DNA of 20,420 nt from a virus (IMGVR_UViG_3300003324_000477:1-20420); one strand, 5' to 3'. Positions 725-20,181 are shown, numbered from the stretch's first letter. Notes: generated from the letters alone by a model not told the origin. Numbers and translations are program-made.

Positions 725-828
725 GGTCGGTACATGTACCCGTGCGGCTCGGCCGCGTGACGCCGCGCGACGCGTTTCGCGAGTTTCTGGACGACGACAT
801 GGCCGATTGTGATTTCCCCCATGCCTAA
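721..828 (+). CDS. Possible 35-residue small protein
   Basis: A short frame from GTG 721 to TAA 826-828 fills the gap between the first gene and the DUF1064-like gene. Its GTG overlaps the upstream TGA in a GTGA arrangement, and its TAA stop lies inside a GCCTAAC motif and overlaps the downstream ATG at 821. The predicted peptide contains RVTPRDAFREFLDDD and ends in DCDFPHA, which looks like a plausible acidic, partly helical miniprotein. There is no recognisable domain. The tight overlaps on both sides are the main support. The alternative is a non-coding junction. Confidence 0.4.
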   Translation: MRSVHVPVRLGRVTPRDAFREFLDDDMADCDFPHA

Positions 829-1309
829 CCCGCGCGCCGCCGCCGAGCTGCCGCCTGCGCCGAGCACCGCCGATCTCAACGCCGCCAGCGCGGCCGGCAT
901 GACCTACCGCGCCTGGCTCGACGCCGGCCGACCCTCACGTATCACATCAGGTCCGCAGCCGCCGTCGGAAAACAGGAAGACCGGCGTTAGGCCGTACCAC
1001 CCGTACCGCAACAAGTGGGAGCACGACTACGCGAAACGCCTCGACTACGAGCGCGCGATCGGCCTCATCACCGAGTGGAGCTACGAGTCGGAGCGCCTCA
1101 CGATCGGCGAGGGCGCGACGTTCCTGCCCGACTTCCCCGTCACGCTCGCCGACGGGACGCGCGAGATGCGCGAGGTGAAAGGCTATCGGCGCGAGGCGGC
1201 GATGGTGCGGATCCGCGTCGCGGCGAAGCAATACCCGCATCTCCGGTTCGTGCTCGTGACGCGCGTGAACGGCGAGTGGATCCGCACGACGATCGGAGCG
1301 CGGCGATGA
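809..1309 (+). CDS. DUF1064-type PD-(D/E)XK nuclease-like phage protein
   Basis: This is a 166-residue protein if read from GTG 809; an in-frame ATG at 821 gives 162 residues and is equally possible, with no clear Shine-Dalgarno sequence for either. After a low-complexity Ala/Pro-rich N-terminus comes NKWEHDYAKRL (around residues 68-78), then LPDFPV (Asp 108) and REVKGY (Glu 122, Lys 124). This N..E / PDF / EVKG order is the pattern of DUF1064, a small phage family with a restriction-endonuclease-like (PD-(D/E)XK) fold, thought to act as a resolvase or nuclease on phage DNA. The activity is inferred from the family. The stop overlaps the next ATG (ATGA at 1306-1309), so the two are translationally coupled. 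It contains one CGTTAGGC motif, read here as Val-Arg. Confidence 0.8.
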   Translation: MISPMPNPRAAAELPPAPSTADLNAASAAGMTYRAWLDAGRPSRITSGPQPPSENRKTGVRPYHPYRNKWEHDYAKRLDYERAIGLITEWSYESERLTIGEGATFLPDFPVTLADGTREMREVKGYRREAAMVRIRVAAKQYPHLRFVLVTRVNGEWIRTTIGARR

Positions 1310-1473
1310 AATGCACCTGCGAGAATCCCGACCCGATCGAGATCACCGACGAGAGCTTCGAGGGCCTGTTCACCGACACGCCGATCAAAGCCGAGCGAAG
1401 CTTCATGTGCGGGCGATGCGGCCTAACGATCCCGCACGACGACGGGCCGTACGTGCCTGGCGTGATCGAATGA
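1306..1473 (+). CDS. Cys-rich 55-residue miniprotein, putative zinc binding
   Basis: The ATG overlaps the previous stop and the TGA at 1471-1473 overlaps the next ATG, so this small gene sits snugly in an overlapping three-gene run. The peptide begins MKCTCENPDP and later has FMCGRCGLTIPH. Cys 3, Cys 5, Cys 35, Cys 38 and His 44 could together bind one zinc ion as a compact ribbon. I do not recognise a named family. One GCCTAACG motif is present, read as Gly-Leu-Thr. Supported by overlap geometry and a protein-like composition; function unknown. Confidence 0.7.
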   Translation: MKCTCENPDPIEITDESFEGLFTDTPIKAERSFMCGRCGLTIPHDDGPYVPGVIE

Positions 1474-1901
1474 GGATCTACATCGCCGGGCCGATGAGCG
1501 GGCAACCGCTCTACAATTTCCCAGCGTTCGACGAAGCTGCCGCACGTTGGCGCTCCAACGGGCACGACGTCACGTCGCCCGCCGACATCACGCGCGGACT
1601 CTACTGGGAGCGCTTCGGCCGCCAGTACGACCCCGCTGTCGATCGCGTCGAATGGGGCGACCGGATCACCTGCGAGCTGTTCGAGCGCGACCTCCGCGCG
1701 GTCTGCACGGTCGACGGCATCGCGCTCCTCGCCGGCTGGAAGCACTCGCGCGGCGCAAAGATGGAGATCGCCGTCGGTCTCGCACTGGGGAAGATGTTCT
1801 ACGACGCCGAGCGCATGGAGCATATGGGGGTCGAGGCGACGATCATCGCAGACGTCGCGTGGGTTGCTGAGCAGCGTCTCTTACAACCATCCGGAGCCTA
1901 A
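1470..1901 (+). CDS. DUF4406 protein, nucleoside 2-deoxyribosyltransferase-like
   Basis: A 143-residue protein starting at ATG 1470, overlapping the upstream TGA. The N-terminus IYIAGPMSGQPLYNFPAF is the hallmark of DUF4406, a Rossmann-like family related to nucleoside 2-deoxyribosyltransferases. Further family features are the GHDVTSPADI strand and the GIALLAGWKHSRGAKMEIAVG block, whose Glu is the probable catalytic position by analogy. Such proteins are common in phages and are thought to take part in nucleotide or base metabolism, but the substrate is not established. The gene ends at TAA 1899-1901, a stop supplied by a GCCTAACG motif that lies just before the next start. One non-motif TTA codon occurs near the C-terminus (1881-1883). 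Confidence 0.85.
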   Translation: MRIYIAGPMSGQPLYNFPAFDEAAARWRSNGHDVTSPADITRGLYWERFGRQYDPAVDRVEWGDRITCELFERDLRAVCTVDGIALLAGWKHSRGAKMEIAVGLALGKMFYDAERMEHMGVEATIIADVAWVAEQRLLQPSGA

Positions 1902-1905
1902 CGCC

Positions 1906-2172
1906 ATGGCCGCCAAGCGCTATTACCTGATCCGCACGCCCGACATGCGCCGCCGCTCGCGCCGCTCGATCCGCGGCATCACCCGCACGAACAAGCGCGA
2001 CGCGATTCGCGAGGCGAAGCTCCAGGCGAACAGCGAGCAGCTCCGCAACCGCACGCCGGTGCGCAACCGCCGCGTCTCGGTCTACTCCTGCGAGCCCGGC
2101 CAGCGGCCCTCGCTCCTGCTCCAGATCCACGTCAGCCGCAAGACGGGGCATTTCGTCATGGAGCAGCTGTAG
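1906..2172 (+). CDS. Small Arg/Lys-rich protein, unknown function
   Basis: An 88-residue protein from ATG 1906, four bases after the preceding TAA. The frame is open further upstream, but the ATG placed just after the GCCTAACG motif is the natural start. It begins MAAKRYYLIRTPD and is very basic in its first half (RRRSRRSIRG, then TNKRDAIREAK), with a more hydrophobic C-terminal part LLLQIHVSRKTGHFV. The charge suggests nucleic-acid or virion contact, but this is only a guess. I do not recognise the family. The next gene starts two bases after its TAG. Confidence 0.7.
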   Translation: MAAKRYYLIRTPDMRRRSRRSIRGITRTNKRDAIREAKLQANSEQLRNRTPVRNRRVSVYSCEPGQRPSLLLQIHVSRKTGHFVMEQL

Positions 2173-2174
2173 CC

Positions 2175-2453: not shown

Positions 2454-2574
2454 CCCGGAGGTCCCGATTGGCCTAACGCATGAAGTCGACACGTTCGCCG
2501 AGCGTGTCATCGACGCCCTCTTCGGCTCGTATTTCCGTAGCATCAAACGCGACATCATCCGGAGGATCGACGAC

Positions 2575-2793: not shown

Positions 2794-2802
2794 CACGTCC
2801 AC

Positions 2803-2837
2803 GCGTCGGGGCTCGTCAGGCACGAGAGCCCCGACGC
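2803..2837 (+). terminator. Stem-loop, likely intrinsic terminator
   Basis: A perfect 12-bp inverted repeat (GCGTCGGGGCTC at 2803-2814 and its complement at 2826-2837) encloses an 11-base loop and is followed by CATTTCC, a modest T tract. It sits ten bases after the stop of the small helical gene and before the next start at 2866, a suitable place to end an accessory-gene transcript. Confidence 0.75.
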
Positions 2838-2865
2838 CATTTCCTCACGATCAATCCGGGCGCGC

Positions 2866-3452: not shown

Positions 3453-3456
3453 AGCG

Positions 3457-3485: not shown

Positions 3486-3523
3486 AGAGCAGCGCACGAC
3501 AACCGGCAGCACCGTGCTCACCC

Positions 3524-3912: not shown

Positions 3913-4063
3913 CCCGAGAGCCTAACGCGGCGTGTCATCGCGACACGGTGTCACCTAACGAGGACGGGGGGAGGGGGTGTCCAATCTCTGAGACAGGGGC
4001 CCAAAAGACCGTGCGCCGGTTTCGCGCACACTCCCGCGAAATTCGCCGGTGGGGGGTAGCCTG
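3913..4063 (+). other. Non-coding interval between HNH and small terminase, candidate packaging (cos) region
   Basis: About 150 bases without a convincing gene. It holds a GCCTAACG motif (3920-3927) and a near copy ACCTAACG (3953-3960), a CGTGTC/GACACG inverted repeat (3931-3947) followed by another GTGTC, a G-rich run at about 3964-3979, and a GTGCGC/GCGCAC inverted repeat (4011-4029). An HNH-terS spacer with G runs and small inverted repeats is where cos sites are often found in phages of this layout. No overhang can be assigned from sequence alone. Confidence 0.4.
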
Positions 4064-4543
4064 ATGGCGCGCGGACGGAAGCCGAAACCGACCGTGCTCA
4101 AACTGCTCGCCGGGAACCCCGGGAAACGAAAGCAGAACAAGCGCGAGCCGAAGATGAAGGGCGGGAAGATTTCCCCGCCGTCCTGGCTCGGTCGCGCGGC
4201 GAAGCTCGAGTGGACCCGGGTGCTCAAGGTCGCGCCGTTAGGCCTGCTGACGCAGGGCGACCGGCAGCTGTTCGCGCAGTATTGCCAGAATTCCGCGCGC
4301 ATCGCGGAGCTCGAGAAGATCGTGACCGACAACGGCTACACGTTCGTGACGGACAAGGGCTACGTGGTGCAGCGCCCGGAGATCGCGATTCTCCGCAACC
4401 TGCAGCAGCTCCAGGTGCGCATCTGCGCCGAGCTCGGACTGAGCCCGTCGTCGCGTAGCCGTATCGAGCTGGCACCGGACGCGCCGATCGCGGCGACCGA
4501 CCCCGCTGAGGACCTCCTCTTTGGCAACCGCCGTAGCGGTTGA
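4064..4543 (+). CDS. Terminase small subunit, P27 family
   Basis: A 159-residue protein from ATG 4064, with a G-rich stretch just upstream as ribosome binding site; a GTG at 4049 would add five residues. It shows the P27 (Terminase_4) pattern: GRKPKPTVLKLLAGNPGKRK, a Trp in the PPSWLGRAAKLEW helix, LGLLTQGDRQLFAQYC, then a central IAELEKIVTDNGYTF block, RPEIAILRN and a C-terminal helix LQVRICAELGLSPSSRSR. The small subunit recognises the packaging site on concatemeric DNA and recruits the large subunit. The gene overlaps the TTG start of the large subunit, fitting coupled production. One TTA-GGC motif encodes Leu-Gly in LGLLT. Confidence 0.92.
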   Translation: MARGRKPKPTVLKLLAGNPGKRKQNKREPKMKGGKISPPSWLGRAAKLEWTRVLKVAPLGLLTQGDRQLFAQYCQNSARIAELEKIVTDNGYTFVTDKGYVVQRPEIAILRNLQQLQVRICAELGLSPSSRSRIELAPDAPIAATDPAEDLLFGNRRSG

Positions 4544-6224
4544 GCGCCCGATGGGGCGCTTCGAGCGGTTATGCTGGGAGCGCCACGAGCGCGACCTGGC
4601 GCTCGCGTATGCGGACGGCGCGGTGCCGAAAGATCCGCGGAAGACGCACCACCCGAAGGGATTCTGGTTCGATCCCGACGCCGCCGAGCGGCCGATCGTC
4701 GTCACGGAGAAACTCTGCCGCCATCACAAGGGCGAGTGGGCGGGCAAGCCGTTTCTCCTCGAGGAGTGGCAGCGGCGGATCCTGCGCATCGTGTTCGGCT
4801 GGAAGCGCGCGGACGGGACGCGCCGCTTCCGCATCGTCTACATCGAGGTCCCGCGGAAGAACGGGAAGTCCGAGCTCGCCGGTGCGGTCGGGCTCTACCT
4901 GCTCGTCGCTGACGACGAGCCGGGTGCGGAGGTGTACTCCAGCGCGACGAAGAAGGACCAAGCGAAGATCGTGCACGACGCAGCGGTCGCGATGGTGAAG
5001 GCGAGCCCGGAGCTCCGCCGGTTCGTGCGGTCGTTCCGCAACAACCTGCACTGCCCGCGGCTCGGATCGAAGTTCGAGCCGTTAGGCGCCGACTCCTCGA
5101 CGTTGGACGGGCTCAACCCGCACGGCAACATCGTCGATGAGTTGCACGCGCATAAAGACCGCGGTCTCTGGGACGTGCTCGACACCGCGATGGGCGCGCG
5201 CCGGCAGCCGCTGACGTGGGCGATCACGACCGCCGGCACGTACGAGCCCGAGTCGATCGGCTGGCAGATGCACGACCACGCGACCAAGGTGCTCGACGGA
5301 GCGATCGAGGACGAGGCGTTCTTCGGGTTCATCGCGGCCGCCGACCCCGAGGACGACTGGGCGCATCCGGACACGTGGGCGAAGGCGAACCCGAACATCG
5401 GCGTCGCGATCAAGCCGGAGTACCTCGCCGCACAGGCGGAGAAGGCGAAGCAGCAGCCGTCGTTCCTGAACACGTTCCTCCGGCTGCATCTCGACCGCTG
5501 GACGCAGCAGGCCGAGCGCTGGATCGACCTCGAGCAGTGGAACGCCTGCGACATCGAGTGCACGCGGAAGGAGATGGAGCAGCGGGAGACAGCGCTCGAG
5601 GGCGCGACGTGCTACGGAGGGCTCGACCTCTCGACGAAGCTCGACGTCACGGCGCTCGTGCTCGTGTTCCCGGACACGTGGGACCTGCTCTGCCGGTTCT
5701 TCGTGCCGGAAGACAACGTCGCCGAACGCGTTAGGCGGGACCGCGTCCCGTACGACGCGTGGATCCGTGACGGCTGGCTCCTCGCGACGCCGGGCAACGT
5801 GATCGACTACGCGTTCATCCGCGAGGAAGCGAAGCGCCTCGCGGCCAGGTTCGACGTCCGCGAGTGGGCGTACGACCCGTGGAACGCGACCGAGACCGCG
5901 ACGGAGCTCCAGGGCGACGAGGGCTTCGCGATGGTCGAGGTGCGGCAGGGGTACCGCTCGCTCTCCGAGCCGTCGAAGAAGTTCGAGGAGCTCGTGGTCT
6001 CGAAGGCGTGGCGCCACGGCGGGCACCCGGTCATGCGCTGGATGGTCGCGAACGTCGCGGTCCGCGAGGACCCGAACGGGAACATCGCGCCGGAGAAGCC
6101 GAAGCGGCACACCGGGCTCCGCATCGACGGTGTCTCGGCGACGATCACGGCGCTCACCCGCGCGATCGTGGGCGCGAGCGGGTCGAGCGTGTACGAGGAG
6201 CGCGGCTTCGTGGAGCTCGGATGA
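4521..6224 (+). CDS. Terminase large subunit (ATPase and nuclease)
   Basis: A 567-residue TerL, the motor that translocates DNA into the prohead and cuts the concatemer. The TTG at 4521 is chosen because GAGG lies nine bases upstream; ATG 4551 is the alternative. The ATPase part has a Walker A-like VPRKNGKSE (residues 110-118) and a Walker B VDELH (205-209), followed by the coupling-type segment WAITTAGT (about 233-240). The nuclease part shows GGLDLS (Asp 369), YDPWN (Asp 452) and RIDGVSA (Asp 536), the usual RNase H-like acidic triad spacing. Two CGTTAGGC motifs occur, one as Leu-Gly (5080) and one out of that frame as Val-Arg (5729). The stop overlaps the next start (ATGA). Confidence 0.95.
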   Translation: MATAVAVERPMGRFERLCWERHERDLALAYADGAVPKDPRKTHHPKGFWFDPDAAERPIVVTEKLCRHHKGEWAGKPFLLEEWQRRILRIVFGWKRADGTRRFRIVYIEVPRKNGKSELAGAVGLYLLVADDEPGAEVYSSATKKDQAKIVHDAAVAMVKASPELRRFVRSFRNNLHCPRLGSKFEPLGADSSTLDGLNPHGNIVDELHAHKDRGLWDVLDTAMGARRQPLTWAITTAGTYEPESIGWQMHDHATKVLDGAIEDEAFFGFIAAADPEDDWAHPDTWAKANPNIGVAIKPEYLAAQAEKAKQQPSFLNTFLRLHLDRWTQQAERWIDLEQWNACDIECTRKEMEQRETALEGATCYGGLDLSTKLDVTALVLVFPDTWDLLCRFFVPEDNVAERVRRDRVPYDAWIRDGWLLATPGNVIDYAFIREEAKRLAARFDVREWAYDPWNATETATELQGDEGFAMVEVRQGYRSLSEPSKKFEELVVSKAWRHGGHPVMRWMVANVAVREDPNGNIAPEKPKRHTGLRIDGVSATITALTRAIVGASGSSVYEERGFVELG

Positions 6225-6412: not shown

Positions 6413-8046
6413 TGGGACTCGTCGCGAGTCTGTTCGCGCCCCCGCGCTCGGAGTCGCCGTACAAGCCGTGGGACGATTTCTGGTACCAGAATGCTGTTGG
6501 CATCGGGACGAGCGTCGGGATCGCGGTCACGCCACTCGTCGCGCTGCAGGTCGCCGCCGTCTTCGCCTGCGTGAAGGTGATCTCGGAAACGCTCGCGAGC
6601 CTGCCGCTTATCGTCTACCGCCGGAGGAAGTCGGGCGGCAAGGACCGGGCGACCGATCACCCCCTCTACTCGATCCTCCACGACTCGCCGAACGCCTGGC
6701 AGACCGCGTTCGAGTTCATCGAGGACCAGACCGGGCACGCCGCCCTGCACGGCCGGTGCTTCGCGCAGATCCTACCCGGCACGTTAGGCAGCGTCGGCGA
6801 GCTCGTGCCGATCCACCCGGACCGCGTGCGGCTCGAGCAGCTGCCGAACCGCCGGATCCGCTACCAGGTGCGCGAGCAGGACGGCACTACGACGCCGCTC
6901 ACGCAGGACGAGATGCTCCACGTGCGCGGCCGCTCGCTCGACTTCGTGAACGGGCTCTCGACGCAGCAGCAGGCGCGCGACGCGATCGCGCTCGCGCGGG
7001 CGATCGAGACCTTCGGCGCGCGGTTCTTCGCCAACGACGCGAGCGTGGGGCTCGTGCTCGAGCACCCGGCGAAGCTCAGCAAGGAAGCGCAGCAGCGGCT
7101 CGAGGATGGGTTCAAGGCGCGGTCCGCTGGGCTCATCAACGCGCACAAGCCGAAGGTCCTGGAAGAGGGCATGAAGGTGAGCCGCGTCCCGATGACGTCG
7201 GCCAAGGACTCGCAGCTCACCGACGCGCAGGAAGCGGCGGTGCTTGTGATCTGCCGCTACTTCCGCATGCCGCCGCACAAGATCCAGCACCTGCTCAACG
7301 CGACGTTCTCGAACATCGAGCACCAGGGCATCGAATTCGTGACCGACACGATGATGCCGTGGGCCAGGCGGTGGGAGCAGCGGATCAACGCGTCGCTCGT
7401 GAGCGACCCCGACCAGTTCTTCGCCGAGTTCCTGCTGGTGGGCCTGCTCCGTGGGGACGCGGTCGCGCGGTCGCAGTACTACACCTCGCGCTTCAACATC
7501 GGCACACTGAGCCCGAACGACATCCGCGAGCTCGAGAACGAGAACCCGATCGACTCCCCTTGGGCGAATCGGTATTTCGTCCAAGGAGCCATGGTGCCGC
7601 TCGACCGGATCGACAGCTTCGTCGGCGGCAAGAGCACCGGCGCCCAGGACCCGGCGTCCGATGCGCCGCCGCCTAACGCCCCTCGGCGCGCGTTCCGCAC
7701 GCTCGCGAGCGACGCGGCCGAGCGCATCGCGCGCGCGGAGGTCCGCGAGATCGAGCAGCGGGGGGCGAAGCTCGCGAAGACGCCGGAGAAGCTGACCGGA
7801 TGGCTCGCGGCGTTCTACACCGAGCACACCACGTACGTCGCGCGCACGCTCCGCCCGCTTGCCGAAGCATGGGAGGAAGAGACGGGGCGGCGCATCGACG
7901 TCGCGGCGCTCGCCGCGGCCGTGGCTGACGGACGCTTTGCGATCGTGAACGACTTCACCGCCGAGTTTTCGGAGTGGCGCGAGGAGCGCGCCGCGGCCAT
8001 CACCCTCGTCCTGCGACAGGAGTTCGACCGTGACCAAGCGCATTGA
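6412..8046 (+). CDS. Portal protein, HK97 family
   Basis: A 544-residue portal protein, the dodecameric ring at the capsid vertex through which DNA enters and leaves. The start ATG 6412 overlaps the upstream TAA. Family features in order: AVFACVKVISETLASLPLIVY (about 49-69), DHPLYSILHDSPNAW, IPDRV-like IHPDRVRLEQL, EMLHVRGRS, IETFGARFFANDAS, VCRYFRMPPHKI-like CRYFRMPPHKIQHL, and RFNIGTLSPNDIRELENENPI (about 362-382). After about residue 415 there is a Pro/Ala-rich linker and a charged helical C-terminal extension of roughly 120 residues, longer than the minimal HK97 portal. It carries one TTA-GGC motif and one GCCTAACG in the linker (Pro-Asn-Ala). It overlaps the protease gene by 17 bases. 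Confidence 0.95.
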   Translation: MGLVASLFAPPRSESPYKPWDDFWYQNAVGIGTSVGIAVTPLVALQVAAVFACVKVISETLASLPLIVYRRRKSGGKDRATDHPLYSILHDSPNAWQTAFEFIEDQTGHAALHGRCFAQILPGTLGSVGELVPIHPDRVRLEQLPNRRIRYQVREQDGTTTPLTQDEMLHVRGRSLDFVNGLSTQQQARDAIALARAIETFGARFFANDASVGLVLEHPAKLSKEAQQRLEDGFKARSAGLINAHKPKVLEEGMKVSRVPMTSAKDSQLTDAQEAAVLVICRYFRMPPHKIQHLLNATFSNIEHQGIEFVTDTMMPWARRWEQRINASLVSDPDQFFAEFLLVGLLRGDAVARSQYYTSRFNIGTLSPNDIRELENENPIDSPWANRYFVQGAMVPLDRIDSFVGGKSTGAQDPASDAPPPNAPRRAFRTLASDAAERIARAEVREIEQRGAKLAKTPEKLTGWLAAFYTEHTTYVARTLRPLAEAWEEETGRRIDVAALAAAVADGRFAIVNDFTAEFSEWREERAAAITLVLRQEFDRDQAH

Positions 8047-8935
8047 CAACATCCTCCGCGCCGTCTGCGCTGAGCCGTGGGCGATCATCCACGGGAAGCT
8101 CGAAGCGATTCTCGAGTTCCTCGCGCTGCGCGCCGACGGCGTTGTGTTCTCGGCCGAGGAGATCGCGTCCCGCGTCGGCGAGGGCCAGCGGACGCCGGCC
8201 AAGGCGAACGGCGTGGCCGTGATCCCGATCTACGGGATCATCTCGCACCGCACGGTGATGAACATGAGCGGGCCCGGCACGACGTCGACGCTCGCGATCG
8301 GCCGCGCGCTCGACGAGGCGTTAGGCAACCCGGACGTTGGCGGCATCCTGTTCGACGTCGACAGCCCAGGGGGGACAACGTCCGGCGTCATGGAGGTCGC
8401 GCAGAAGATCTTCGACGCGCGCGGACAGAAGCCCATGATCGCGATCGCGAACGCCATGATGGCGAGTGCCGCGTACTTCATTGGCTCGGCGGCCGACGAG
8501 GTGGTCGTCACGCCGTCGGGCCACTCGGGCTCGATCGGCGTGTACACCGTGCACGTCGACCAGTCGAAGATGAACGAGCAACTCGGTATCAAGCCGACGA
8601 TCGTGAGCGCCGGGAAATTCAAAGTCGAGGGCAACACCACCGAGCCACTCTCCGACGAGGCGCGCGGCGCGCTCCAGCAGCTCGTGGACGACGCCTACGC
8701 GCAGTTCGTGAACGCGGTGGCGAAGCACCGCGGCGCGACGCCGTCCGAGGTCAGGGACGGGTTCGGCGAGGGCCGCGTGCTCTCGGCCGATCGGTCCGTT
8801 GAAGCGCGGCTCGCCGACCGAGTCGCCACGTTCGACGAGACGCTCGCCCGGCTCGCGAACCCGCGTCGCGCGGCGAGCGTGGGGAAGAACCGGGCGACCG
8901 CGGCGCGTCGCCTCTCACTCCTGGAGCAGCAATGA
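8030..8935 (+). CDS. Prohead protease, peptidase S49 (SppA/ClpP-like)
   Basis: A 301-residue serine protease starting at GTG 8030, inside the portal gene. The fold signature is GVAVIPIYGIIS (61-72), ILFDVDSPGGTTSG (106-119), then NAMMASAAYFIGSAAD with the probable nucleophile Ser 146. It continues with GHSGSIGVYTVHVD and IVSAGKFKVEGNTTEPLS, where Lys 198 lies 52 residues after Ser 146, the spacing of the Ser-Lys dyad in SppA-type enzymes. In phages with a separate S49 protease next to the portal, it matures the capsid by removing the delta/scaffold domain. That role is inferred from the gene order portal-protease-capsid. Contains one TTA-GGC motif (Leu-Gly). Its TGA overlaps the next ATG. Confidence 0.93.
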   Translation: MTKRIDNILRAVCAEPWAIIHGKLEAILEFLALRADGVVFSAEEIASRVGEGQRTPAKANGVAVIPIYGIISHRTVMNMSGPGTTSTLAIGRALDEALGNPDVGGILFDVDSPGGTTSGVMEVAQKIFDARGQKPMIAIANAMMASAAYFIGSAADEVVVTPSGHSGSIGVYTVHVDQSKMNEQLGIKPTIVSAGKFKVEGNTTEPLSDEARGALQQLVDDAYAQFVNAVAKHRGATPSEVRDGFGEGRVLSADRSVEARLADRVATFDETLARLANPRRAASVGKNRATAARRLSLLEQQ

Positions 8936-9144: not shown

Positions 9145-9359
9145 GCGCCGCCTAACAAAATTCCTCTTGACCGATCGGCCATCACGCTGTTAGCCATTCG
9201 CGCGTGCCCTGACTGACGCGGCAGCGCGTTAGGGCTGTGCGGGACAACTGAATCGTTATCCTCCACGCGGAAGCGGTTGGAAACGATTGACCGAGGGAGC
9301 GGACTCCGTCCGCGCTCAAGTCGATCCTTCCCACCGCTTTTTCGTTTGAGGGTAACCCC
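9145..9359 (+). other. Structured 215-base intergenic region before the capsid gene
   Basis: No supported gene. The left half holds GCCTAACA (9150-9157), the palindrome CCGATCGG, TGTTAGCC (9189-9196) and CGTTAGGG (9228-9235), an arrangement with some likeness to an integron attC site. The right half is a long imperfect hairpin ending in five T. GAGGG at 9348-9352 is the ribosome binding site of the capsid gene. No convincing promoter was found. Confidence 0.6.
9271..9342 (+). terminator. Long imperfect hairpin with T tract ahead of the capsid gene
   Basis: The outer arms AAGCGGTTGGAA (9271-9282) and TTCCCACCGCTT (9328-9339) pair at 11 of 12 positions. Inside, CGATTGA (9284-9290) pairs with TCAAGTCG (9316-9323) with one bulged G. 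Innermost is a GCGGAC/GTCCGC stem (9299-9304, 9308-9313) with a TCC loop. Five T close the structure at 9338-9342. It looks like an intrinsic terminator or a processed leader hairpin. Which one is unclear, since the capsid start follows 18 bases later. Confidence 0.5.
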
Positions 9360-11434: not shown

Positions 11435-11442
11435 CCCTCACG

Positions 11443-11467
11443 AGGGAGCGGCGTTAGGCCGCTCCCT
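11443..11467 (+). terminator. Hairpin with CGTTAGGC motif in its loop region
   Basis: A 10-bp perfect stem (AGGGAGCGGC at 11443-11452, complement at 11458-11467) closes a five-base GTTAG loop and starts eight bases after the preceding stop codon. There is no long T run after it (TACTCCC). The motif CGTTAGGC at 11452-11459 forms the loop and its flanks; an opposite-orientation copy follows at 11482-11489. Likely a terminator or mRNA-stabilising hairpin after the capsid-gene pair. Confidence 0.55.
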
Positions 11468-11517
11468 TACTCCCTCCTGTCGCCTAACGGCGGGCTGCGG
11501 CCCGACTGGAGATCGAT

Positions 11518-12249: not shown

Positions 12250-12251
12250 GC

Positions 12252-12833
12252 GTGTCCGCGCTCCTCGACGTCGCCGACCTGATCGACTTGTTAGGCGAGG
12301 AATCGTCCGCGGACGAGGCCTTGCTCGATCAGCTCATCGGCGACGTCGAGGCGGTGTTCCTCGGCGAGTGCAACCGCGCGGACCTCGCGTTCTCGGAGGC
12401 CGCCCCGGGCCGCGAGGAAGAGCTCGACGGCACGGGGACCGCGACCCTCTGGCTCGATTACCCGATCGCCGACCTCACGAGCGTCGTGCTCGGCTACAAC
12501 GTCGACCAGCCGGACTGCACGCTCGACCCGGACGACGTCACGCAGCTCGTGTGGAAGGTTGGCTCGCGGCGCGTCTCGCGCGTCGACGGCGGGGTGTTCG
12601 GGTGCCTGGGCCTCCCGCTCTACGTGCACGTGACGTACGACACCCAGGAGTACCTCCCGGCCGACGCGGCCGCGGCCATCAAGTCGGTCTGCGCCGCGTG
12701 GTACCGCCAGCGCGGGAGCGACGGACTCCGGTCCGAGCGTGTCGGGCCATACTCGTCGGACTTCCGATCATTGCTCGACAGCGACGATCTCTGGCAGTCA
12801 GCGGTGTCGCATCACCGGGAGATCCCGGTATGA
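12252..12833 (+). CDS. Head-tail connector, gp6-like (DNA packaging/adaptor)
   Basis: A 193-residue protein from GTG 12252. The N-terminus DVADLIDLLGEESSADEALLDQLIGDVEAVFLGECNRADL is the helical layout of HK97 gp6-like/Gp15-type adaptor proteins that form the ring under the portal. The central strands (GTATLWLDYPIADLTSVVLG, a GSRRVSRVDGGVF hairpin) and the later helix PADAAAAIKSVCAAWYRQR followed by GPYSSDF also fit the family. Its role is to extend the portal channel and link it to the head-closure protein. One TGTTAGGC motif encodes Leu-Gly near the N-terminus. The stop overlaps the next ATG (ATGA). Confidence 0.8.
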   Translation: MSALLDVADLIDLLGEESSADEALLDQLIGDVEAVFLGECNRADLAFSEAAPGREEELDGTGTATLWLDYPIADLTSVVLGYNVDQPDCTLDPDDVTQLVWKVGSRRVSRVDGGVFGCLGLPLYVHVTYDTQEYLPADAAAAIKSVCAAWYRQRGSDGLRSERVGPYSSDFRSLLDSDDLWQSAVSHHREIPV

Positions 12834-13168
12834 GCGTCGCCGGCCGCAACATGGTGCGCGGCTCGTCGCTCACCACGTACCATCCCGAAGAGACCGACGA
12901 CGCGATCGACTGGGGACAGCCGGTGCTCGAGGAGGTGAAGGTCGAGCTCCTGCCGGCGACCGACGAGGTCGCGCGCGAAGTGTTCGGCGCGGACCGCCGC
13001 GTCGAGCTCACCGCGATGGTCCCGTCCTCGTGGGACCTGCTCGAGAAGGACGGCGTTGTCGTGAACGACGGCGCGTACGCCGGCGAGAACCTCCGCGTGA
13101 CGGCCCGCCGCCCGTTAGGCAGATACGCGGAAGTCGGGCTCGAGCGGACGACGGAGGCCATCCCGTGA
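12830..13168 (+). CDS. Head closure / head-tail joining protein
   Basis: A 112-residue protein from ATG 12830, overlapping the connector stop, and ending in a GTGA overlap with the next gene. It is beta-rich: VKVELLPATDEVAREVFGADRRVELTAMVPSSWDLLEKDGVVVNDGAYAGENLRVTARRPLG. That resembles the small barrel head-closure proteins (SPP1 gp16 / HK97 gp7 type), where a phrase like 'a valid position, then V.DG..Y.V' describes the exposed ring. The call rests largely on gene order between the gp6-like and gp10-like genes, with fold-like support from sequence. One CGTTAGGC motif gives Leu-Gly. Confidence 0.7.
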   Translation: MSVAGRNMVRGSSLTTYHPEETDDAIDWGQPVLEEVKVELLPATDEVAREVFGADRRVELTAMVPSSWDLLEKDGVVVNDGAYAGENLRVTARRPLGRYAEVGLERTTEAIP

Positions 13169-13599
13169 GCCGGTCGGTCAACGCCATGAGCCGCGGCGAG
13201 CTGCAGCGCGGGCTCCGCCAGGTCACGAAGGACGTCGAGCGGATGACCGCGGAGATCTCCGGCGCGAACTCCGAGCCGGTGAAGCGCGCGGCGTCGGTGC
13301 TGCAGCGCAACTGGCGCCGGCTGCTCAACGTGCGCGCGAAAGGCCCGTCAGCGCCGGGCACGCCTCCGCACCGCCACGCCGGGCGGCTCTTCAAGTCGAT
13401 CCGTCAGGCCGTCGTCGACGGCGTGCGCCGGGTCGGCTCCGGGGACTTCCGCTCCTGGATGACGGAGTTCGGCGTCGACGACAAGCCGCCGCGCCCGCAC
13501 GCGCGGCCGGCGTTCGAGCTGTCCCAGCAGGAGATGACCGAGGTCATCGTGACCGAGTCGCAGCGCGCGGTCGTGAACGCGCCGCTCGGAGGCGCCTAA
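13165..13599 (+). CDS. HK97 gp10-like tail completion / neck protein
   Basis: A 144-residue protein from GTG 13165 (overlapping the previous TGA). Conserved features of the gp10 family are an N-terminal helical region (ELQRGLRQVTKDVERMTAE), the central PPHRHAGRLFKSIRQ block, the TEFG element and the PRPHARPAFELSQQEM motif near the C-terminus. In HK97-like phages gp10 lies at the head-tail interface and is needed for tail completion or joining. The gene ends with TAA 13597-13599 inside a GCCTAACG motif whose last base begins the next GTG start. Confidence 0.85.
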   Translation: MSRSVNAMSRGELQRGLRQVTKDVERMTAEISGANSEPVKRAASVLQRNWRRLLNVRAKGPSAPGTPPHRHAGRLFKSIRQAVVDGVRRVGSGDFRSWMTEFGVDDKPPRPHARPAFELSQQEMTEVIVTESQRAVVNAPLGGA

Positions 13600-13600
13600 C

Positions 13601-14056
13601 GTGGCGACCTCCTTCGACACGCTCCTCGAGACGGGCATCCGGGCGATCGCGAACGCCGACGGGCCGCAAGCCACGCCGGGGACGCTGCGCTACCTCTGCG
13701 GCCGCGACACCCGGATCATCGTGCCCTGGAAGACCGCGGCGGACGCGGCGCAGCCCGGCATCGCGATGACGATCGTGTCGAACGTGCCCACCGGCGGCAC
13801 CGGAGACCGCCGCCGCGTCCAGCTCCAGTTCTCGGCGTTCGCGCAGGGCTCCGGCGCGCGCGCGCGCGTCCAGGCCATGACGCAGCGGCTGCGCGAGATC
13901 CTGAAACCGCCGGCGCTGCTCGCCCAGGGCATCGACGGCGAGGTCCTGGAGTTCACCACCCGCGACGGCACCGACGGCGAGGTCGACGACGCGTCGCCCA
14001 AGGCCAAGGCGCGATGGGACCTCGACGCGGTGCTGCGCGGGACGGCGCCCCGATGA
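13601..14056 (+). CDS. Tail terminator-like protein (DUF3168 / lambda U-like position)
   Basis: A 151-residue protein whose GTG start at 13601 directly abuts the GCCTAAC motif. It has an N-terminal helix SFDTLLETGIRAIANADG, strands TRIIVPWK and AMTIVSNVP, GDRRRVQLQFSAFAQGSG, a long helix ARARVQAMTQRLREIL, and a C-terminal AKARWDLDAVLRG strand. This helix-strand-helix-strand pattern matches tail terminator proteins, which cap the growing tail tube and set its end. Its place between the gp10-like gene and the tail tube gene supports this. The family name is less certain than the role. Confidence 0.75.
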   Translation: MATSFDTLLETGIRAIANADGPQATPGTLRYLCGRDTRIIVPWKTAADAAQPGIAMTIVSNVPTGGTGDRRRVQLQFSAFAQGSGARARVQAMTQRLREILKPPALLAQGIDGEVLEFTTRDGTDGEVDDASPKAKARWDLDAVLRGTAPR

Positions 14057-14079
14057 CCCTAACGATTGCGTCACCCACT

Positions 14080-14124: not shown

Positions 14125-14859
14125 ATGCCTCGCGCACTTACCGGGTCGGATCTGTTTCAGTACCTCGACCGCTTCGAGAAGATCGTCGTCAAGTCCGGCG
14201 GCGGGGACACGACGACGGCCGGCGCCATCACGGCCGGCGAGAACACGGTCGACATCACGTCGGCGACCGGGTTCAACGACGGCGACGTCTGCATGATCGA
14301 CGGCGGCGGCGCTGGCATCGAGATCACGCAGATCGACGGATCGCCCGCGACGACGAACAACCCGCTCGACCGGCCGCTCCTCAAGTCGCGACTCGCGGGC
14401 GCGCGGTTCGTCGAGGCCGAAGTCATCAACATGGGGCACATCGCCGAAGGCGGTCTGCAGTTCGGCGGCTCGCAGACCCTGACCGAGATCAAGGCCGCGA
14501 CCTCGCGCACCGCGATCGCGTTCTTCGGCGAGTCCACGACGCTCACGCTGACCGCGCCTCTGCTCGAGTTCAACGGCCTGAACCTCCAGTCCGTCTTCGG
14601 CGCCACCGAGAACGAGACGGGCGCGGGCACCGAGGCCGACCCGTACGCGGTCGTCATCGACGAGGACACGGTCGGCACGCAGGGTATTCACTGCTACCGC
14701 GCGTGGGGCACGCTGTACGACGGCAAGATCGTGCAGATCGACTTCACGCAGGCGACGGTCGAGGTGAACAACAACATCACCATCGGCGCGCCGAACCCGG
14801 ACGGCATGACGCTCAACGCGAAGGTCACGGCGTTTTTCGCGCGCGTCTGGGCGGCCTAA
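14125..14859 (+). CDS. Major tail (tube) protein
   Basis: A 244-residue protein from ATG 14125 with AGGAG at 14114-14118, one of the clearest ribosome binding sites in the window, as expected for an abundant structural protein. The sequence is beta-rich (VKSGGGDTTTAGAITAGENT, a GGLQFGGSQTLTEIKAA segment, SRTAIAFFGESTTLTLTAP) and ends with VEVNNNITIGAPNPDGMTL followed by AKVTAFFARVWAA. It forms the stacked hexameric rings of the tail tube. The assignment rests on composition, expression signal and gene order (terminator before, tape measure after). The TAA stop is provided by a GCCTAACG motif. Confidence 0.75.
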   Translation: MPRALTGSDLFQYLDRFEKIVVKSGGGDTTTAGAITAGENTVDITSATGFNDGDVCMIDGGGAGIEITQIDGSPATTNNPLDRPLLKSRLAGARFVEAEVINMGHIAEGGLQFGGSQTLTEIKAATSRTAIAFFGESTTLTLTAPLLEFNGLNLQSVFGATENETGAGTEADPYAVVIDEDTVGTQGIHCYRAWGTLYDGKIVQIDFTQATVEVNNNITIGAPNPDGMTLNAKVTAFFARVWAA

Positions 14860-14866
14860 CGCGGTC

Positions 14867-15754: not shown

Positions 15755-18700
15755 GTGGCGGCGCCGACCAGGAAGCTGGCGGAGCTGTTTTACGAGATCC
15801 GCGGGCGGACCTCGGGACTCCAGTCCGACCTGAAACAGGCGGAGACGCAGTTCGGGAAGCTCGCCGACTTTGTGAAGGCGAACCCCATCGCCGCGGTAGC
15901 GGCGTTAGGCACCGCGATCGCGGGAGTCGCCATCCAGGCGACGCGCATGGCGTCCGAGGTCGAGACGTCGCTCCGGCGCGTCACGAACACGATCCCCGAC
16001 GGCATCCAGGGACTCGACACGCTGCGCGAGGGCATCGCCGCTGTCTCGCGGGAGACCGGGAAGTCGCAGGCCGAGCTCGCGCAGAACCTGGCCGAGATCG
16101 CGAAGGGCGGCGTCGAGGGGCCGGAGGCGGCCGTCGCGCGGCTCAAGGCGGTGCAGACCGCCGTGGACGCCACCGGCGAGGACTTCAACACCGTCGTCGA
16201 GGGGCTCGACCAGACGCTCGACCTCTTCGGCGGCACGAGCGAGGACGCGGCGCGCGCGCTCGGGACGCTCTTCGCAGCGGCGAAGGGGCACTCGTCGCTC
16301 ACGGACCTCTTCGCGCAGCTCCAGGCCGCGGCGCCGGCGGTCAACCGGCTCAATCTGGACCTCGATACGACGGCCAAGGCGCTCGTCGCGTTAGGTGAGC
16401 AGGGGCTGAGCCCCAAGCAGGCGGCGAGTGAGCTCAACAAGCTCGCCGACTCCGGCGCGACCGGCCGGAAGGCGATCGAGGACCTCGCCGCCTCGATCCA
16501 GCCGGCGGGCGACGGCCTGGCGGATCTCACGAAAGCAGCGAACGACTTCAACAACTCGGCCGAGCAGCTGAACAAGCGCGCACTCAACGACTTCAAGGCG
16601 GTGATGATCGATCTCGGCCGACAGATCCTCCCGGCCGTGACCGACGAGCTGAAGCTCCTCCTGCAGTTCATAGACAAGATCACCGGCGCCACGTCGAAGC
16701 GGATCCAGACGCTCGGCCTCTCCGATCTCGGCGCGAAGTTCGAGGAGGCGACGCGCGAGACGACGGAGCGGCTGCAGCTCCAGACCGGGAGCTTCGTGAA
16801 GGCGGCGCAGCAGCTCGCGAAGGTGGTCGCGGACGGCCAGCTCGACATCATCGCCACGACGCAGGAGGGCATCGCCGGCGTCGCGGCGGGGCTCGAGCAC
16901 CTCAAACAGATCGGCGTCCTCAAGGCCGGCGAGGTGCAGGCGACGATCGACGCGCTGAACAAGGCCGCGGCGAAGGGGAGCGGCGTCGACCTGCGCGGCG
17001 GGAAATCGGGTCCGACCGGCGACGAGCTGGAGAAACAGGCGAAGGCGGCCGCCGACGCGCAGAAGGCCGTCGCCGACCTCGCCGACAAGGTGACGAAGCT
17101 CGGCAGCGTGCAGGGCCAGACGAACGGCGTCACACACCTCTCGGCGCAGGCGTATGCCGACCTCGCCGTCGAGATCTCCAAGGCGCGCGACAAGTTCCCG
17201 CAGTTCAGTGAAGATCTCGACGGGATGGCGAAGCGGCTCGTCGCGCTCCGGCAGGCTGCCTCGCAGTTCGAGGCAGCCGAACTCGCGCACGAGATCGACA
17301 CGCTGCTGGCGTCGTTCACCGCGACCACGGTCGACGACCTGACGCTGGCGTTAGGCGAGCTGCAGAAGAAGCTCCGCGAGAAGGGCGCGACCGAGGAACA
17401 GATCAAGCAGATCACGGACCTCGAGCAGTCGTTCATCGACGCGCGGAAGGCGTCCGAGGAACTCGACAAATCGCTCGAGTCCGGGCGCAACGGCGCGCTC
17501 TCGCCGCTCCGTGAGATGGTGCAGCTCCTCGACCAGCAGGCCGAGGCGGAGCGGCAGCTCGCGGCGCTGAAGGACAAGGGCGCCGGGTTCGACAAGACGC
17601 GCGCGGAGCTGCTCGAGCAGATCCGGAAGCTCCAGGAGCGGATCAAGGAGCTCGAAGACGAGAACGAGAAGAAGACCGGACAGCACACACAGAAGACCCG
17701 CGACTGGGGCAAGGAGGTCGCGAACGTCGCGAAGGCGGCGTTCGGGGTAGCCACGGCGCTACTCGGCGCAGATAACACGCTGACCAAGATGATCGGCTCG
17801 GCGTCGCAGGTGGCTGACGGGCTCTCTGACATCGCGCAGCTGGCGCACGACGCGGGTGGCCTCGGCAAGCTGTTCTCTTCCGGCGCGGGCATCCTCTCCG
17901 CGATCCCCGCGATCGGCCAGATCATCGGCGGCGGTGCGGCGATCGCAAGCTTGTTAGGCGAGTCGCCGGAGCGGAAGGCGGCGACGCGGGAACTGCACGA
18001 GGCGGCCGACGCGCTCAAGCGGGCGGCCGGCGACCTGAGTCGCGTCTCGCTGAGCGGCGCGACGACGGCGGGCGTGCAGCGCGCGGTCGGCGGCATCACC
18101 ATCCCGGAGTTCGGCCCCGGGAAGATCAACACCGCGACCGAGGACGCTGTTGCCGCCGCGGAGCTCGGGAAGGCGCTGCGCCAGGCCGGCATCTCGATGA
18201 AGGACTTCGAGCAGATCGCCAAGGACCTGGGCTTCGACTTCTCGAAGGGCGTCACGGCGGAAGGGCTCAAGGCGTTCCAGGCGGCGCTCCGCGAGCTCGA
18301 CTTCAAGGCGTTCACCGACACGTTCGAGGGCCAGCTCTCGGCGCTCGAGCAGCGGTTCCGGCTGTTCGACGTCAGCGAGCCGTCGGCGCAGTTCGATGCG
18401 CTGATCAAGCTGCTCACGGACCCGAAGGTCGGCGCGCCGGCGCTCTTCGGCGCGCTCGAGGGGCTCGACACGAAGACGGCGGAGGGGCGCGCGAAGGCGA
18501 AGGAGGCGATTCAGAAGATCTTCCAGGGCATCGTCGACGGGACGATCACGCCGGAGATGCTGAACGGGCTGAACCTCGACCAGCTGCGCGAGATCCTCGA
18601 CCAGCTCTTCGGCCTGTTAGGCGACACGACCGACCAGGCGATCTCCCTGCTCGACAAGCTGAACGCCGCGTTCGCCGACATCGACGTGGACCTCGAGATC

Positions 18701-19351
18701 GCCGGCATAACCGACCCGCTGACGAAGGCGATCAAGCGCGCCGCCGCCGCGGTCGCGAACGACCCGCGCATCGCGGGGGCGCTCGCGGGGCTCGACCTCG
18801 CGAACGAGGACCAGCGGCGGCAGGCGATCGCCGCGCTGCAGGCGCTCGCGGACGGCGCGGATAAGGAGCTCAAGCAGATCATCCTCGAGCTGCTCCGTTC
18901 GATCCGCGACATCCCGGACGCAGTGAACGGCGACGGGAAGAATGGGGAGTCGGTCATCGTCTCCAACGCCGCGCGCGGCCTCACCGAGACGACAGGGAAC
19001 CGCATGGCCGACTACCTCGCCACCGCGAACATCATCGCCCGCGAGCACACCGACCTCCTCACGGAGATCCGCGACCGCATCGCGCCGATCACGGACGTCC
19101 AGGTGCCGGCCCTCGTGCAGCCGCCGGCGTTCTCAGGGTCGTTAGGCGCCGCGGCCGCCACGTCGTCGACGGCGATCAACCTGGCGATCGCGCCGGGCGC
19201 GTTCGTGGTCAACGCGCCGTCGCTCGGCGACTCGGCGGTCCGGCAGCAGGTCGCGGCCGACCTCTCGCGCCAGGTGATCCGCAACATCTCCGAAGGCTTG
19301 GGGCGCGAGGCGAGGCAGATCCTGCGCGCCAAGGGGATCTCCGTCGCATGA
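15755..19351 (+). CDS. Tail tape measure protein
   Basis: A 1198-residue protein from GTG 15755, the longest gene in the window, which sets tail length and is later ejected with the DNA. It has a hydrophobic segment NPIAAVAALGTAIAGVAIQA (about 43-62) and TMP-like repeats of Ala/Leu-rich helices (ETSLRRVTNTIPDG, AVSRETGKSQAELAQNLAEIAKGG). A strong coiled coil lies at about 603-648 (ELLEQIRKLQERIKELEDE). A Gly/Ala-rich hydrophobic block at about 650-735 could cross a membrane (AGILSAIPAIGQIIGGGAAI). At about 0.15 nm per residue it would specify a tail near 180 nm. Five exact TTA-GGC copies and one TTA-GGT occur in it. The stop overlaps the next ATG. Confidence 0.95.
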   Translation: MAAPTRKLAELFYEIRGRTSGLQSDLKQAETQFGKLADFVKANPIAAVAALGTAIAGVAIQATRMASEVETSLRRVTNTIPDGIQGLDTLREGIAAVSRETGKSQAELAQNLAEIAKGGVEGPEAAVARLKAVQTAVDATGEDFNTVVEGLDQTLDLFGGTSEDAARALGTLFAAAKGHSSLTDLFAQLQAAAPAVNRLNLDLDTTAKALVALGEQGLSPKQAASELNKLADSGATGRKAIEDLAASIQPAGDGLADLTKAANDFNNSAEQLNKRALNDFKAVMIDLGRQILPAVTDELKLLLQFIDKITGATSKRIQTLGLSDLGAKFEEATRETTERLQLQTGSFVKAAQQLAKVVADGQLDIIATTQEGIAGVAAGLEHLKQIGVLKAGEVQATIDALNKAAAKGSGVDLRGGKSGPTGDELEKQAKAAADAQKAVADLADKVTKLGSVQGQTNGVTHLSAQAYADLAVEISKARDKFPQFSEDLDGMAKRLVALRQAASQFEAAELAHEIDTLLASFTATTVDDLTLALGELQKKLREKGATEEQIKQITDLEQSFIDARKASEELDKSLESGRNGALSPLREMVQLLDQQAEAERQLAALKDKGAGFDKTRAELLEQIRKLQERIKELEDENEKKTGQHTQKTRDWGKEVANVAKAAFGVATALLGADNTLTKMIGSASQVADGLSDIAQLAHDAGGLGKLFSSGAGILSAIPAIGQIIGGGAAIASLLGESPERKAATRELHEAADALKRAAGDLSRVSLSGATTAGVQRAVGGITIPEFGPGKINTATEDAVAAAELGKALRQAGISMKDFEQIAKDLGFDFSKGVTAEGLKAFQAALRELDFKAFTDTFEGQLSALEQRFRLFDVSEPSAQFDALIKLLTDPKVGAPALFGALEGLDTKTAEGRAKAKEAIQKIFQGIVDGTITPEMLNGLNLDQLREILDQLFGLLGDTTDQAISLLDKLNAAFADIDVDLEIAGITDPLTKAIKRAAAAVANDPRIAGALAGLDLANEDQRRQAIAALQALADGADKELKQIILELLRSIRDIPDAVNGDGKNGESVIVSNAARGLTETTGNRMADYLATANIIAREHTDLLTEIRDRIAPITDVQVPALVQPPAFSGSLGAAAATSSTAINLAIAPGAFVVNAPSLGDSAVRQQVAADLSRQVIRNISEGLGREARQILRAKGISVA

Positions 19352-20181
19352 GAGCCCGCTCCGGAATCGTCTCGGCGGCGGTTGGCAGCGTGACCGCGAC
19401 GTACAAGGACCTCGCCGACTTCGGCTTCACCGTCGAGTCGTGGACCGACGCGCTCAGCGGCCCAGCGCGCTCGTTCTCGACCGCCGCCGTGCCAGGGCGC
19501 CTCGAGACGGTGAAGCTCGCGCCGGATCCGGCCGTGAAGCCGGGCCAGATCATCGTCAACGGCACCGTCACCGGAGACACGATCAGCGACTACCTCACGA
19601 ACCTCCGCAACCTGAAAGGCTGGGCGGTGCGCGCCGTCGCGCTCAAGCTGCTCGCGCTCGACGCCGCGACGTTCGTCGAGGTCGACCAGACCGAGGCGCC
19701 GGTCGTGCACCTCGGGATCCCGGGGCTCACGCCGGCGACCCGCGTGTCGATCACGTTCCAGGCGCTCAAGCCCTACTGGCAGTCGACGACGCTCACGTCG
19801 AACACCCTGACGACCGGCCTCACCGAGCAGGCGTTAGGCACGGCGCCGGTCCGGCCGGTGATCCGCTTCACCGGCGCGCCGACCGGGCTCACGCTCACCT
19901 ACGCCGACTACCTGAACACCACGGTCGGCACGCTCACGCTCTCCGGCCTCGACGCCGGGGCGACGTACACCGAGATCGACATGGACGTGATGTCGGTCGT
20001 ACAGATGATCTCGGGCGTCCTCACCAACGCGATCGACACCCTCGACAACGCGACGGACTTCTTCGCGCTCGACCCGAAGGACGCTGACACCGTCACGCCG
20101 ACGTGGCCGAAGCTCAAGTACGCGCTCGCCGGCGGCAGCGTCTCCGGCGTCACGTGTAGCTACCGGAAGGGTTGGTACTGA
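19348..20181 (+). CDS. Distal tail protein (Dit)-like baseplate component
   Basis: A 277-residue protein from ATG 19348 (ATGA overlap with the tape measure stop). Features that fit siphophage Dit proteins are the N-terminal barrel-like half (FGFTVESWTDALSGPARSF, a GRLETVKLAPDP strand, IIVNGTVTGDTISDYLTNL) and the C-terminal galectin-like half. The protein closes with FFALDPKDADTVTPTWPKLK and VSGVTCSYRKGWY, the typical ending of the family. Dit forms a hexamer at the tail tip that joins the tube to the receptor-binding complex. One CGTTAGGC motif encodes Leu-Gly. The stop overlaps the following ATG (TGATG). Confidence 0.75.
   Translation: MRARSGIVSAAVGSVTATYKDLADFGFTVESWTDALSGPARSFSTAAVPGRLETVKLAPDPAVKPGQIIVNGTVTGDTISDYLTNLRNLKGWAVRAVALKLLALDAATFVEVDQTEAPVVHLGIPGLTPATRVSITFQALKPYWQSTTLTSNTLTTGLTEQALGTAPVRPVIRFTGAPTGLTLTYADYLNTTVGTLTLSGLDAGATYTEIDMDVMSVVQMISGVLTNAIDTLDNATDFFALDPKDADTVTPTWPKLKYALAGGSVSGVTCSYRKGWY

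What the first reader, a model, noticed from the sequence alone, without database searches (positions are those of the whole stretch)
823..19839. Strongly over-represented, dispersed octamer CGTTAGGC
The 7-mer GTTAGGC/GCCTAAC occurs 26 times in about 20.4 kb, 21 times as the full octamer, with gaps never above about 1.6 kb. Assuming about 67% GC (not measured), a 7-mer of this composition is expected only two or three times on both strands. Copies lie in genes of unrelated function and in spacers, so the selection must act on DNA or RNA, not on one protein. Known systems that look like this are DNA uptake sequences (Neisseria, Pasteurellaceae), HIP1 in cyanobacteria, Chi/KOPS-type motifs, and methylation or protein-binding sites. 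A phage sharing it suggests that the motif marks the host lineage or is used by the phage itself.
Basis: partly seen in the sequence, partly recalled or inferred. Interest (0 to 1): 0.88.

Follow-up and report, generated by a model that had tools for sequence, protein, structure and literature searches.

The report
Host-wide octamer shared by its phages
A short DNA word, CGTTAGGC, is scattered about once per kilobase through this phage, through unrelated phages and through two megaplasmids of a cultured soil bacterium of the phylum Gemmatimonadota, so it looks like a lineage-wide 'self' signature, most likely a DNA-uptake-type signal that has not been described for that phylum.

Summary
In detail: GTTAGGC occurs 26 times and CGTTAGGC 21 times in the window (0.71 and 0.35 expected, order-2 Markov). 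Synonymous-codon shuffling gives about 1 genic copy against 23 seen. The window is part of a 28.5-kb virus record; 43 of its 49 TTAG words lie in GTTAGG. Phages 60% identical in terminase lack the motif. A phage sharing only the tail module, and a third, separate phage, carry it.

The same motif saturates both megaplasmids of Gemmatirosa kalamazoonensis (Gemmatimonadota): 892 GTTAGGC in 1.106 Mb and 806 in 1.040 Mb, reversed-word controls 50 and 44. About 560 genomes of other phyla never exceed about 0.055 CGTTAGGC per kb, against 0.71 here. In plasmid 1 it beats codon shuffling 20-fold, is twice as dense between genes, evenly spaced and without strand polarity, takes up 91% of TTA codons, and is at chance level in integron-cassette DNA.

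Best reading: a host-lineage motif that works like a DNA uptake sequence and that its phages share, as Pasteurellaceae phages share theirs (checked here). The uptake function is inferred, not shown. Chi-like, HIP1-like and nucleoprotein readings remain open. Gemmatimonadota chromosomes could not be searched.

The parts
823..829 (-). GTTAGGC (heptamer only)
985..992 (+). CGTTAGGC
1421..1428 (-). CGTTAGGC
1896..1903 (-). CGTTAGGC
2471..2478 (-). CGTTAGGC
3920..3927 (-). CGTTAGGC, between HNH endonuclease gene and small terminase gene
3953..3959 (-). GTTAGGT variant of the motif
4236..4243 (+). CGTTAGGC, Leu-Gly frame in terminase small subunit
5080..5087 (+). CGTTAGGC, Leu-Gly frame in terminase large subunit
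5729..5736 (+). CGTTAGGC, Val-Arg frame in terminase large subunit
6782..6789 (+). CGTTAGGC in portal gene
7671..7678 (-). CGTTAGGC in portal gene (antisense, Pro-Asn)
8319..8326 (+). CGTTAGGC in S49 protease gene
9150..9156 (-). GTTAGGC (heptamer only)
9228..9234 (+). GTTAGGG variant
10720..10727 (+). CGTTAGGC in major capsid gene
11452..11459 (+). CGTTAGGC, intergenic, one of a facing pair
11482..11489 (-). CGTTAGGC, intergenic, other member of the facing pair
12290..12296 (+). GTTAGGC (T before it), Leu-Gly frame
13113..13120 (+). CGTTAGGC
13594..13601 (-). CGTTAGGC; its TAA is the stop codon of ORF 13165-13599
14057..14063 (-). GTTAGGG variant
14854..14861 (-). CGTTAGGC at the end of ORF 14125-14859 (TAA stop)
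15903..15910 (+). CGTTAGGC in tape-measure gene
16390..16396 (+). GTTAGGT variant; homologous site is GTTAGGC in L244
17349..17356 (+). CGTTAGGC in tape-measure gene
17953..17959 (+). GTTAGGC (T before it) in tape-measure gene
18616..18622 (+). GTTAGGC (T before it) in tape-measure gene
19140..19147 (+). CGTTAGGC in tape-measure gene
19832..19839 (+). CGTTAGGC in the tail gene 19348-20181; conserved in L244 as GTTAGGT

Best explanation
CGTTAGGC (core GTTAGG, normally followed by C) is a highly iterated, non-palindromic, strand-neutral 'self' motif of a Gemmatimonadota lineage, and this phage infects that lineage and has been moulded to the same motif. SHOWN: DNA-level enrichment beyond codon and amino-acid constraint in the phage and in a Gemmatirosa megaplasmid; presence in three phage groups and in two megaplasmids; independent gain at non-homologous sites; even spacing; no polarity; absence from integron-cassette DNA and from about 560 genomes of other phyla. 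INFERRED: it works like a DNA uptake sequence. A type-IV-pilus/competence receptor prefers DNA that carries the word, kin DNA is taken up and recombined, and the word accumulates by that drive at about one per kb wherever sequence is permissive, including prophages resident in the lineage. INFERRED too: that the host of this phage is a Gemmatimonadota bacterium; this rests on the motif and composition, since no CRISPR or prophage link could be made.
For: Phage: 26/21 copies vs 0.71/0.35 expected; 23 genic vs 1.2 by synonymous shuffle; 20 of 23 TTA codons are followed by a Gly codon, 18 of them GGC. Lineage: Gemmatirosa plasmid 1 has 892 GTTAGGC (control 50) and plasmid 2 has 806 (control 44). 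Plasmid 1 without a 53-kb duplicated segment: 850 vs 24.5 Markov, genic 560 vs 28 by synonymous shuffle, intergenic 1.42/kb vs genic 0.66/kb, 314 of 345 TTA codons inside GTTAGGC. Density and even spacing are uptake-like: variance/mean 0.74-0.77, 0 of 2000 simulations as low at 1- and 2-kb windows. No polarity, no preference for promoters, terminators or gene ends. Recently mobile DNA lacks it: at most 3 non-attC copies in about 35 kb of integron cassettes, where about 30 would be expected; same-size windows elsewhere hold at least 26. Neisserial DUS are likewise absent from recently acquired genes (PMC2397512). Phage precedent measured here: Haemophilus phage HP1 has 17 AAGTGCGGT (0.31 expected), Aggregatibacter phage S1249 has 19 (0.5), and Mannheimia phage PHL101 has 6 of the other dialect ACAAGCGGT (0.34) and none of the first. 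Turnover: of the aligned sites in the tail module shared with L244, 2 are common and the rest are private.
Against: No competence or uptake experiment in Gemmatimonadota was found, and the chromosome carrying competence genes was not available. Phage density (1.2-1.5/kb) is at or above plasmid density (about 0.8/kb), whereas Pasteurellaceae phages measured here have 0.2-0.5/kb, so phages may be under direct selection inside the cell. The attC sites of the integron carry the same word at 1.24/kb, so the lack of other copies among cassettes could mean 'quota filled' rather than 'foreign'. Only one cultured species was tested.
Confidence: 0.5

Rival explanations
1. Recombination/repair signal of the Chi kind: the host's RecBCD/AddAB-type nuclease recognises GTTAGGC and stops degrading, so host and phage DNA carry it as protection.
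For: Explains why several unrelated phages are saturated. 7-8 nt non-palindromic word, as for Chi. Chi is also scarce in recently acquired genes (PMC8022716).
Against: No strand polarity on plasmid 1 (440/850 on the G-rich strand, p = 0.32), whereas E. [quoted passage not shown] Density is several times higher and near-regular.
Confidence: 0.2
2. HIP1-like iterated motif tied to an orphan DNA methyltransferase or another genome-wide DNA-binding function (replication, repair or genome marking).
For: Same kind of lineage-wide, strand-neutral, coding-and-noncoding enrichment. HIP1 is the named third class beside Chi and uptake words and is linked to methyltransferases (PMC4390886).
Against: HIP1 and its methyltransferase sites are palindromic; GTTAGGC is not. 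Modification could not be read from sequence. Restriction-type sites are normally avoided, not enriched (general knowledge).
Confidence: 0.17
3. Nucleoid or phage-encoded protein binding sites (nucleoid-associated protein, partition, packaging or regulator) used by this phage.
For: Facing pair at 11452/11482; high density in phage spacers (3.4/kb).
Against: Same word in bacterial megaplasmids with no phage relation. No preference for intergenic class, gene starts or gene ends. Phages with unrelated head modules share it.
Confidence: 0.08
4. Mutational or gene-conversion bias, with no function, turns near-matches into the word.
For: TTAG is almost absent outside the motif.
Against: Common one-mismatch neighbours in genes are not depleted (CGTTCGGC 274 vs 243, CGTCAGGC 84 vs 82, CGTTGGGC 121 vs 66 expected by synonymous shuffle), and spacing is more even than random.
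Confidence: 0.05

Closest known systems
DNA uptake sequences (Neisseria DUS; Pasteurellaceae USS)
   Same: Short non-palindromic word about once per kb, both strands, denser between genes, absent from recently acquired DNA; host phages carry the host dialect.
   Different: Different sequence and phylum; no uptake data; phage density at or above that of the plasmids; only two close (under 100 b) facing + - pairs in plasmid 1, so no sign of terminator-type inverted pairs.
HIP1 of cyanobacteria (GCGATCGC)
   Same: Octamer iterated genome-wide in coding and noncoding DNA of one lineage.
   Different: HIP1 is palindromic and contains methyltransferase sites; this word is asymmetric.
Chi and KOPS
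   Same: Asymmetric 7-8-mer, over-represented.
   Different: Those are polarised along replichores; this one is not.
Integron attC R boxes (GTTRRRY)
   Same: GTTAGGC is one of the 16 words that fit GTTRRRY and forms both R boxes of the Gemmatirosa plasmid 1 integron.
   Different: Over 90% of plasmid copies and all phage copies are single words without an attC fold partner.

Membership tests
DNA uptake sequence (DUS/USS) | Short word strongly over-represented genome-wide, about 1 per kb | tested here: met
   0.81/kb and 0.77/kb on two megaplasmids, 1.2-1.3/kb in phages
DNA uptake sequence (DUS/USS) | Over-representation independent of coding constraint, enriched between genes | tested here: met
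   560 vs 28 genic by synonymous shuffle; 1.42 vs 0.66 per kb
DNA uptake sequence (DUS/USS) | Absent from recently acquired genes | tested here: inconclusive
   At most 3 non-attC copies in about 35 kb of cassette DNA, but the attC sites supply the same word
DNA uptake sequence (DUS/USS) | Promotes DNA uptake/transformation in a competent host | not testable with these tools
   No experiment; no competence report for Gemmatimonadota found
DNA uptake sequence (DUS/USS) | Receptor (ComP-like minor pilin) in the host | not tested
   No Gemmatimonadota chromosome in the reachable collections
HIP1 | Sequence GCGATCGC, palindromic | tested here: not met
   CGTTAGGC is not palindromic
Chi / KOPS | Polarity along replichores | tested here: not met
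   440 of 850 sites on the G-rich strand, p = 0.32; plasmid only, weak skew
Integron attC site | Paired R boxes 57-141 b apart in a foldable site | tested here: not met
   No attC-like - + pair in the phage; only the array sites on plasmid 1 qualify

The most novel reading that the evidence does not exclude
A third, independently evolved DNA-uptake (self-recognition) vocabulary exists in Gemmatimonadota, far from Neisseriaceae and Pasteurellaceae, possibly with dialects (strict GTTAGGC in Gemmatirosa and phage G467; GTTAGGY/N in G000 and L244). Its phages keep the word at or above the density of the host's own DNA, because it lets them be exchanged between cells or spared inside them.
Probability: 0.4. 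Interest if true: 0.85.

Novelty: new variant of a known kind. Interest (0 to 1): 0.74.

Why it matters
The only well-established uptake-sequence systems are in Neisseriaceae and Pasteurellaceae (general knowledge), and why such words arise is still debated. A Gemmatimonadota system with cultured members (Gemmatirosa, Gemmatimonas) would give an independent replicate of the phenomenon and a possible handle for transforming a poorly tractable soil phylum. It would also give a simple host-phylum label for uncultured phages: motif density alone led from this contig to the phylum. The saturation of unrelated phages makes 'drive by transformation' versus 'protection inside the cell' directly testable.

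Tried and rejected
Chance or composition: rejected. Protein-level constraint (Leu-Gly): rejected by synonymous shuffling, although the TTA-GGC frame is how most genic copies are accommodated. Common descent of sites: mostly rejected, 2 shared vs several private aligned sites. Host in Actinomycetota (149 genomes), Pseudomonadota (299), Planctomycetota (59), Bacteroidota (41) or 17 mixed genomes: none enriched; the highest is 181 CGTTAGGC in 3.3 Mb. Acidobacteriota (Granulicella plasmid): 12 GTTAGGC in 476 kb. Terminator/inverted-pair role: only two + - pairs under 100 b on plasmid 1, and - + pairs are mostly integron attC sites. Promoter role: equal density in tandem, divergent and convergent spacers. 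Literature search for the word itself: CGTTAGGC as a word in no paper held; no relevant paper on over-represented words in Gemmatimonadota. A viral-contig scan for CGTTAGGCNNNNCGTTAGGC gave mostly chance hits and one further motif-rich phage (G467). One search was an uninformative query.

Full report
OBSERVATION. The window holds 26 GTTAGGC (16 +, 10 -) and 21 CGTTAGGC, first at 823, last ending at 19839, largest gap 1571 b; order-2 Markov expectations are 0.71 and 0.35, and no other 7- or 8-mer approaches this. The window is bases 1-20420 of a 28,550-b virus record, which holds 26 octamers and none of the reversed control. Genes in the window are tailed-phage genes: HNH endonuclease, small and large terminase, portal, S49 protease, HK97-type capsid, connector, tape measure.

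ANATOMY. Across the record 43 GTTAGG are found; C precedes in 36 and C follows in 33; flanking positions carry little information. 43 of 49 TTAG words lie in GTTAGG. From about 24 kb on, the last position is G, T or A rather than C, still with C in front. Genic copies sit mainly in the frame TTA GGC (Leu-Gly): 20 of 23 TTA codons precede a Gly codon, 18 of them GGC. Copies on the minus strand are often in spacers, and some use their TAA as a stop codon. Synonymous shuffling of CDSs gives 1.2 copies on average (maximum 6 of 1000) against 23; noncoding density is 3.4/kb against 1.1/kb.

RELATED PHAGES. Terminase relatives at 55-62% identity (L001-L010) have 0 GTTAGGC. One relative found through a tail protein at 59% identity, L244, has 13 GTTAGG in 9.6 kb. 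Overlapping contigs L245 and L246 of the same phage extend it into a different head module (GpA-type terminase, lambda-type portal) that also carries the word. In the shared tail module two sites are common and the others are private to one phage. A third phage, IMGVR 3300031938_000010 (G467, 41,062 b, 72.6% GC), has 49 GTTAGGC with every GTTAGG followed by C, against 2 reversed controls.

HOST LINEAGE. Surveys of 149 Actinomycetota, 299 Pseudomonadota, 59 Planctomycetota, 41 Bacteroidota and 17 mixed genomes show no enrichment; the highest CGTTAGGC density is about 0.055/kb. A guess at Gemmatimonadota, tested on a plasmid of Gemmatirosa kalamazoonensis, succeeded at once. Plasmid 1 (NZ_CP007129) has 892 GTTAGGC against 50 controls, plasmid 2 (NZ_CP007130) 806 against 44. 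A Granulicella (Acidobacteriota) plasmid has 12 against 67 controls. No Gemmatimonadota chromosome could be reached with the tools, so breadth within the phylum is untested and the host assignment of the phage is an inference.

PROPERTIES IN THE HOST PLASMID (a 53-kb near-duplicate segment removed). GTTAGGC 850 vs 24.5 (order 2), CGTTAGGC 745 vs 13.6. Genic 560 vs 28 by synonymous shuffle; spacer density 1.42/kb against 0.66/kb in genes. 314 of 345 TTA codons are inside the word. One-mismatch neighbours are not enriched, except for changes at the first C, and the common ones are not depleted, which argues against conversion from near-matches. Spacing is more even than random (variance/mean 0.77 and 0.74 at 1 and 2 kb, 0 of 2000 simulations as low). 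There is no strand polarity with GC skew (440/850, p = 0.32) and no bias to gene starts, ends or spacer class.

INTEGRON CONTROL. Plasmid 1 carries a 46-kb integron with 84 attC-type sites and an integron integrase (TIGR02249, 423 bits). Both R boxes are commonly CGTTAGGC, which fits the universal GTTRRRY; this may be coincidence. Outside attC the cassettes hold at most 3 copies in about 35 kb, while all other windows of the array's size hold at least 26. Cassette DNA is therefore near chance level, as reported for uptake words in recently acquired neisserial genes (PMC2397512), unless the attC copies already satisfy the need.

MECHANISM. The combination of density, spacing, spacer preference, absence of polarity and absence from mobile cassettes is that of an uptake sequence. 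Whether phages of uptake-sequence bacteria carry the host word was measured: HP1 17 AAGTGCGGT vs 0.31 expected, S1249 19 vs 0.5, and the Mannheimia phage 6 ACAAGCGGT vs 0.34 with none of the other dialect. So a phage carrying its host's word is a known property of such systems. The uptake step itself, the receptor and competence of the host are inferred. Chi-like protection is the main rival because phage density equals or exceeds plasmid density; lack of polarity and high density speak against it. HIP1-like methylation coupling cannot be excluded without a methylome.

NOVELTY. No paper in the held library contains the octamer as a word, and the searches on over-represented or uptake words in Gemmatimonadota gave no relevant paper. 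It is filed as a new variant of the known kind 'lineage-specific iterated DNA word', not as a proven member of the uptake-sequence family.

Noticed in passing
L291-L296 (NZ_CP007129 about 810-857 kb in record coordinates): Gemmatirosa plasmid 1 carries a 46-kb integron of 84 attC-type sites with an integron integrase; R boxes are mostly GTTAGGC, the same word as the genome-wide motif.
   Followed up: partly
NZ_CP007129 1-106 kb (L309-L313, L250): The first 53,060 b of the record are repeated almost identically right after, either a real tandem duplication or an assembly overlap.
   Followed up: partly
L081:16579-17679 (virus record 25129-26229, minus strand): A 366-aa predicted membrane protein against the direction of the phage genes, without Pfam or PHROG match; looks like a cargo gene.
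   Followed up: partly
L333 about 12142-12260 (IMGVR 3300045136_000261): Dense head-to-tail GTTAGGC array of about 11 copies in a 54% GC contig, unlike the dispersed pattern.
   Followed up: no
G414 (Pseudomonadota genome): 157 forward and 7 reverse CGTTAGGC, a strongly one-sided count that suggests a large integron array.
   Followed up: no
L221 (Clostridia MAG locus): CGAGCGTG occurs 17 times in 21.5 kb against 0.34 expected; another over-represented octamer worth a look.
   Followed up: no
L186 and L187 (Brachyspira prophage loci): GTCTGGTC (10 vs 0.09) and GTCCTGTC (11 vs 0.12) are strongly over-represented, possibly tandem repeats.
   Followed up: no
window 11435-11517: Intergenic facing pair of the motif inside a GC-rich inverted repeat (GGAGCGGCGTTAGGCCGCTCC), terminator-like.
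   Followed up: no
virus record about 20.45 kb and 24.5 kb (L081 about 11.9 and 16.0 kb): Ambiguous bases (X in translations), so the contig has small unresolved spots.
   Followed up: no
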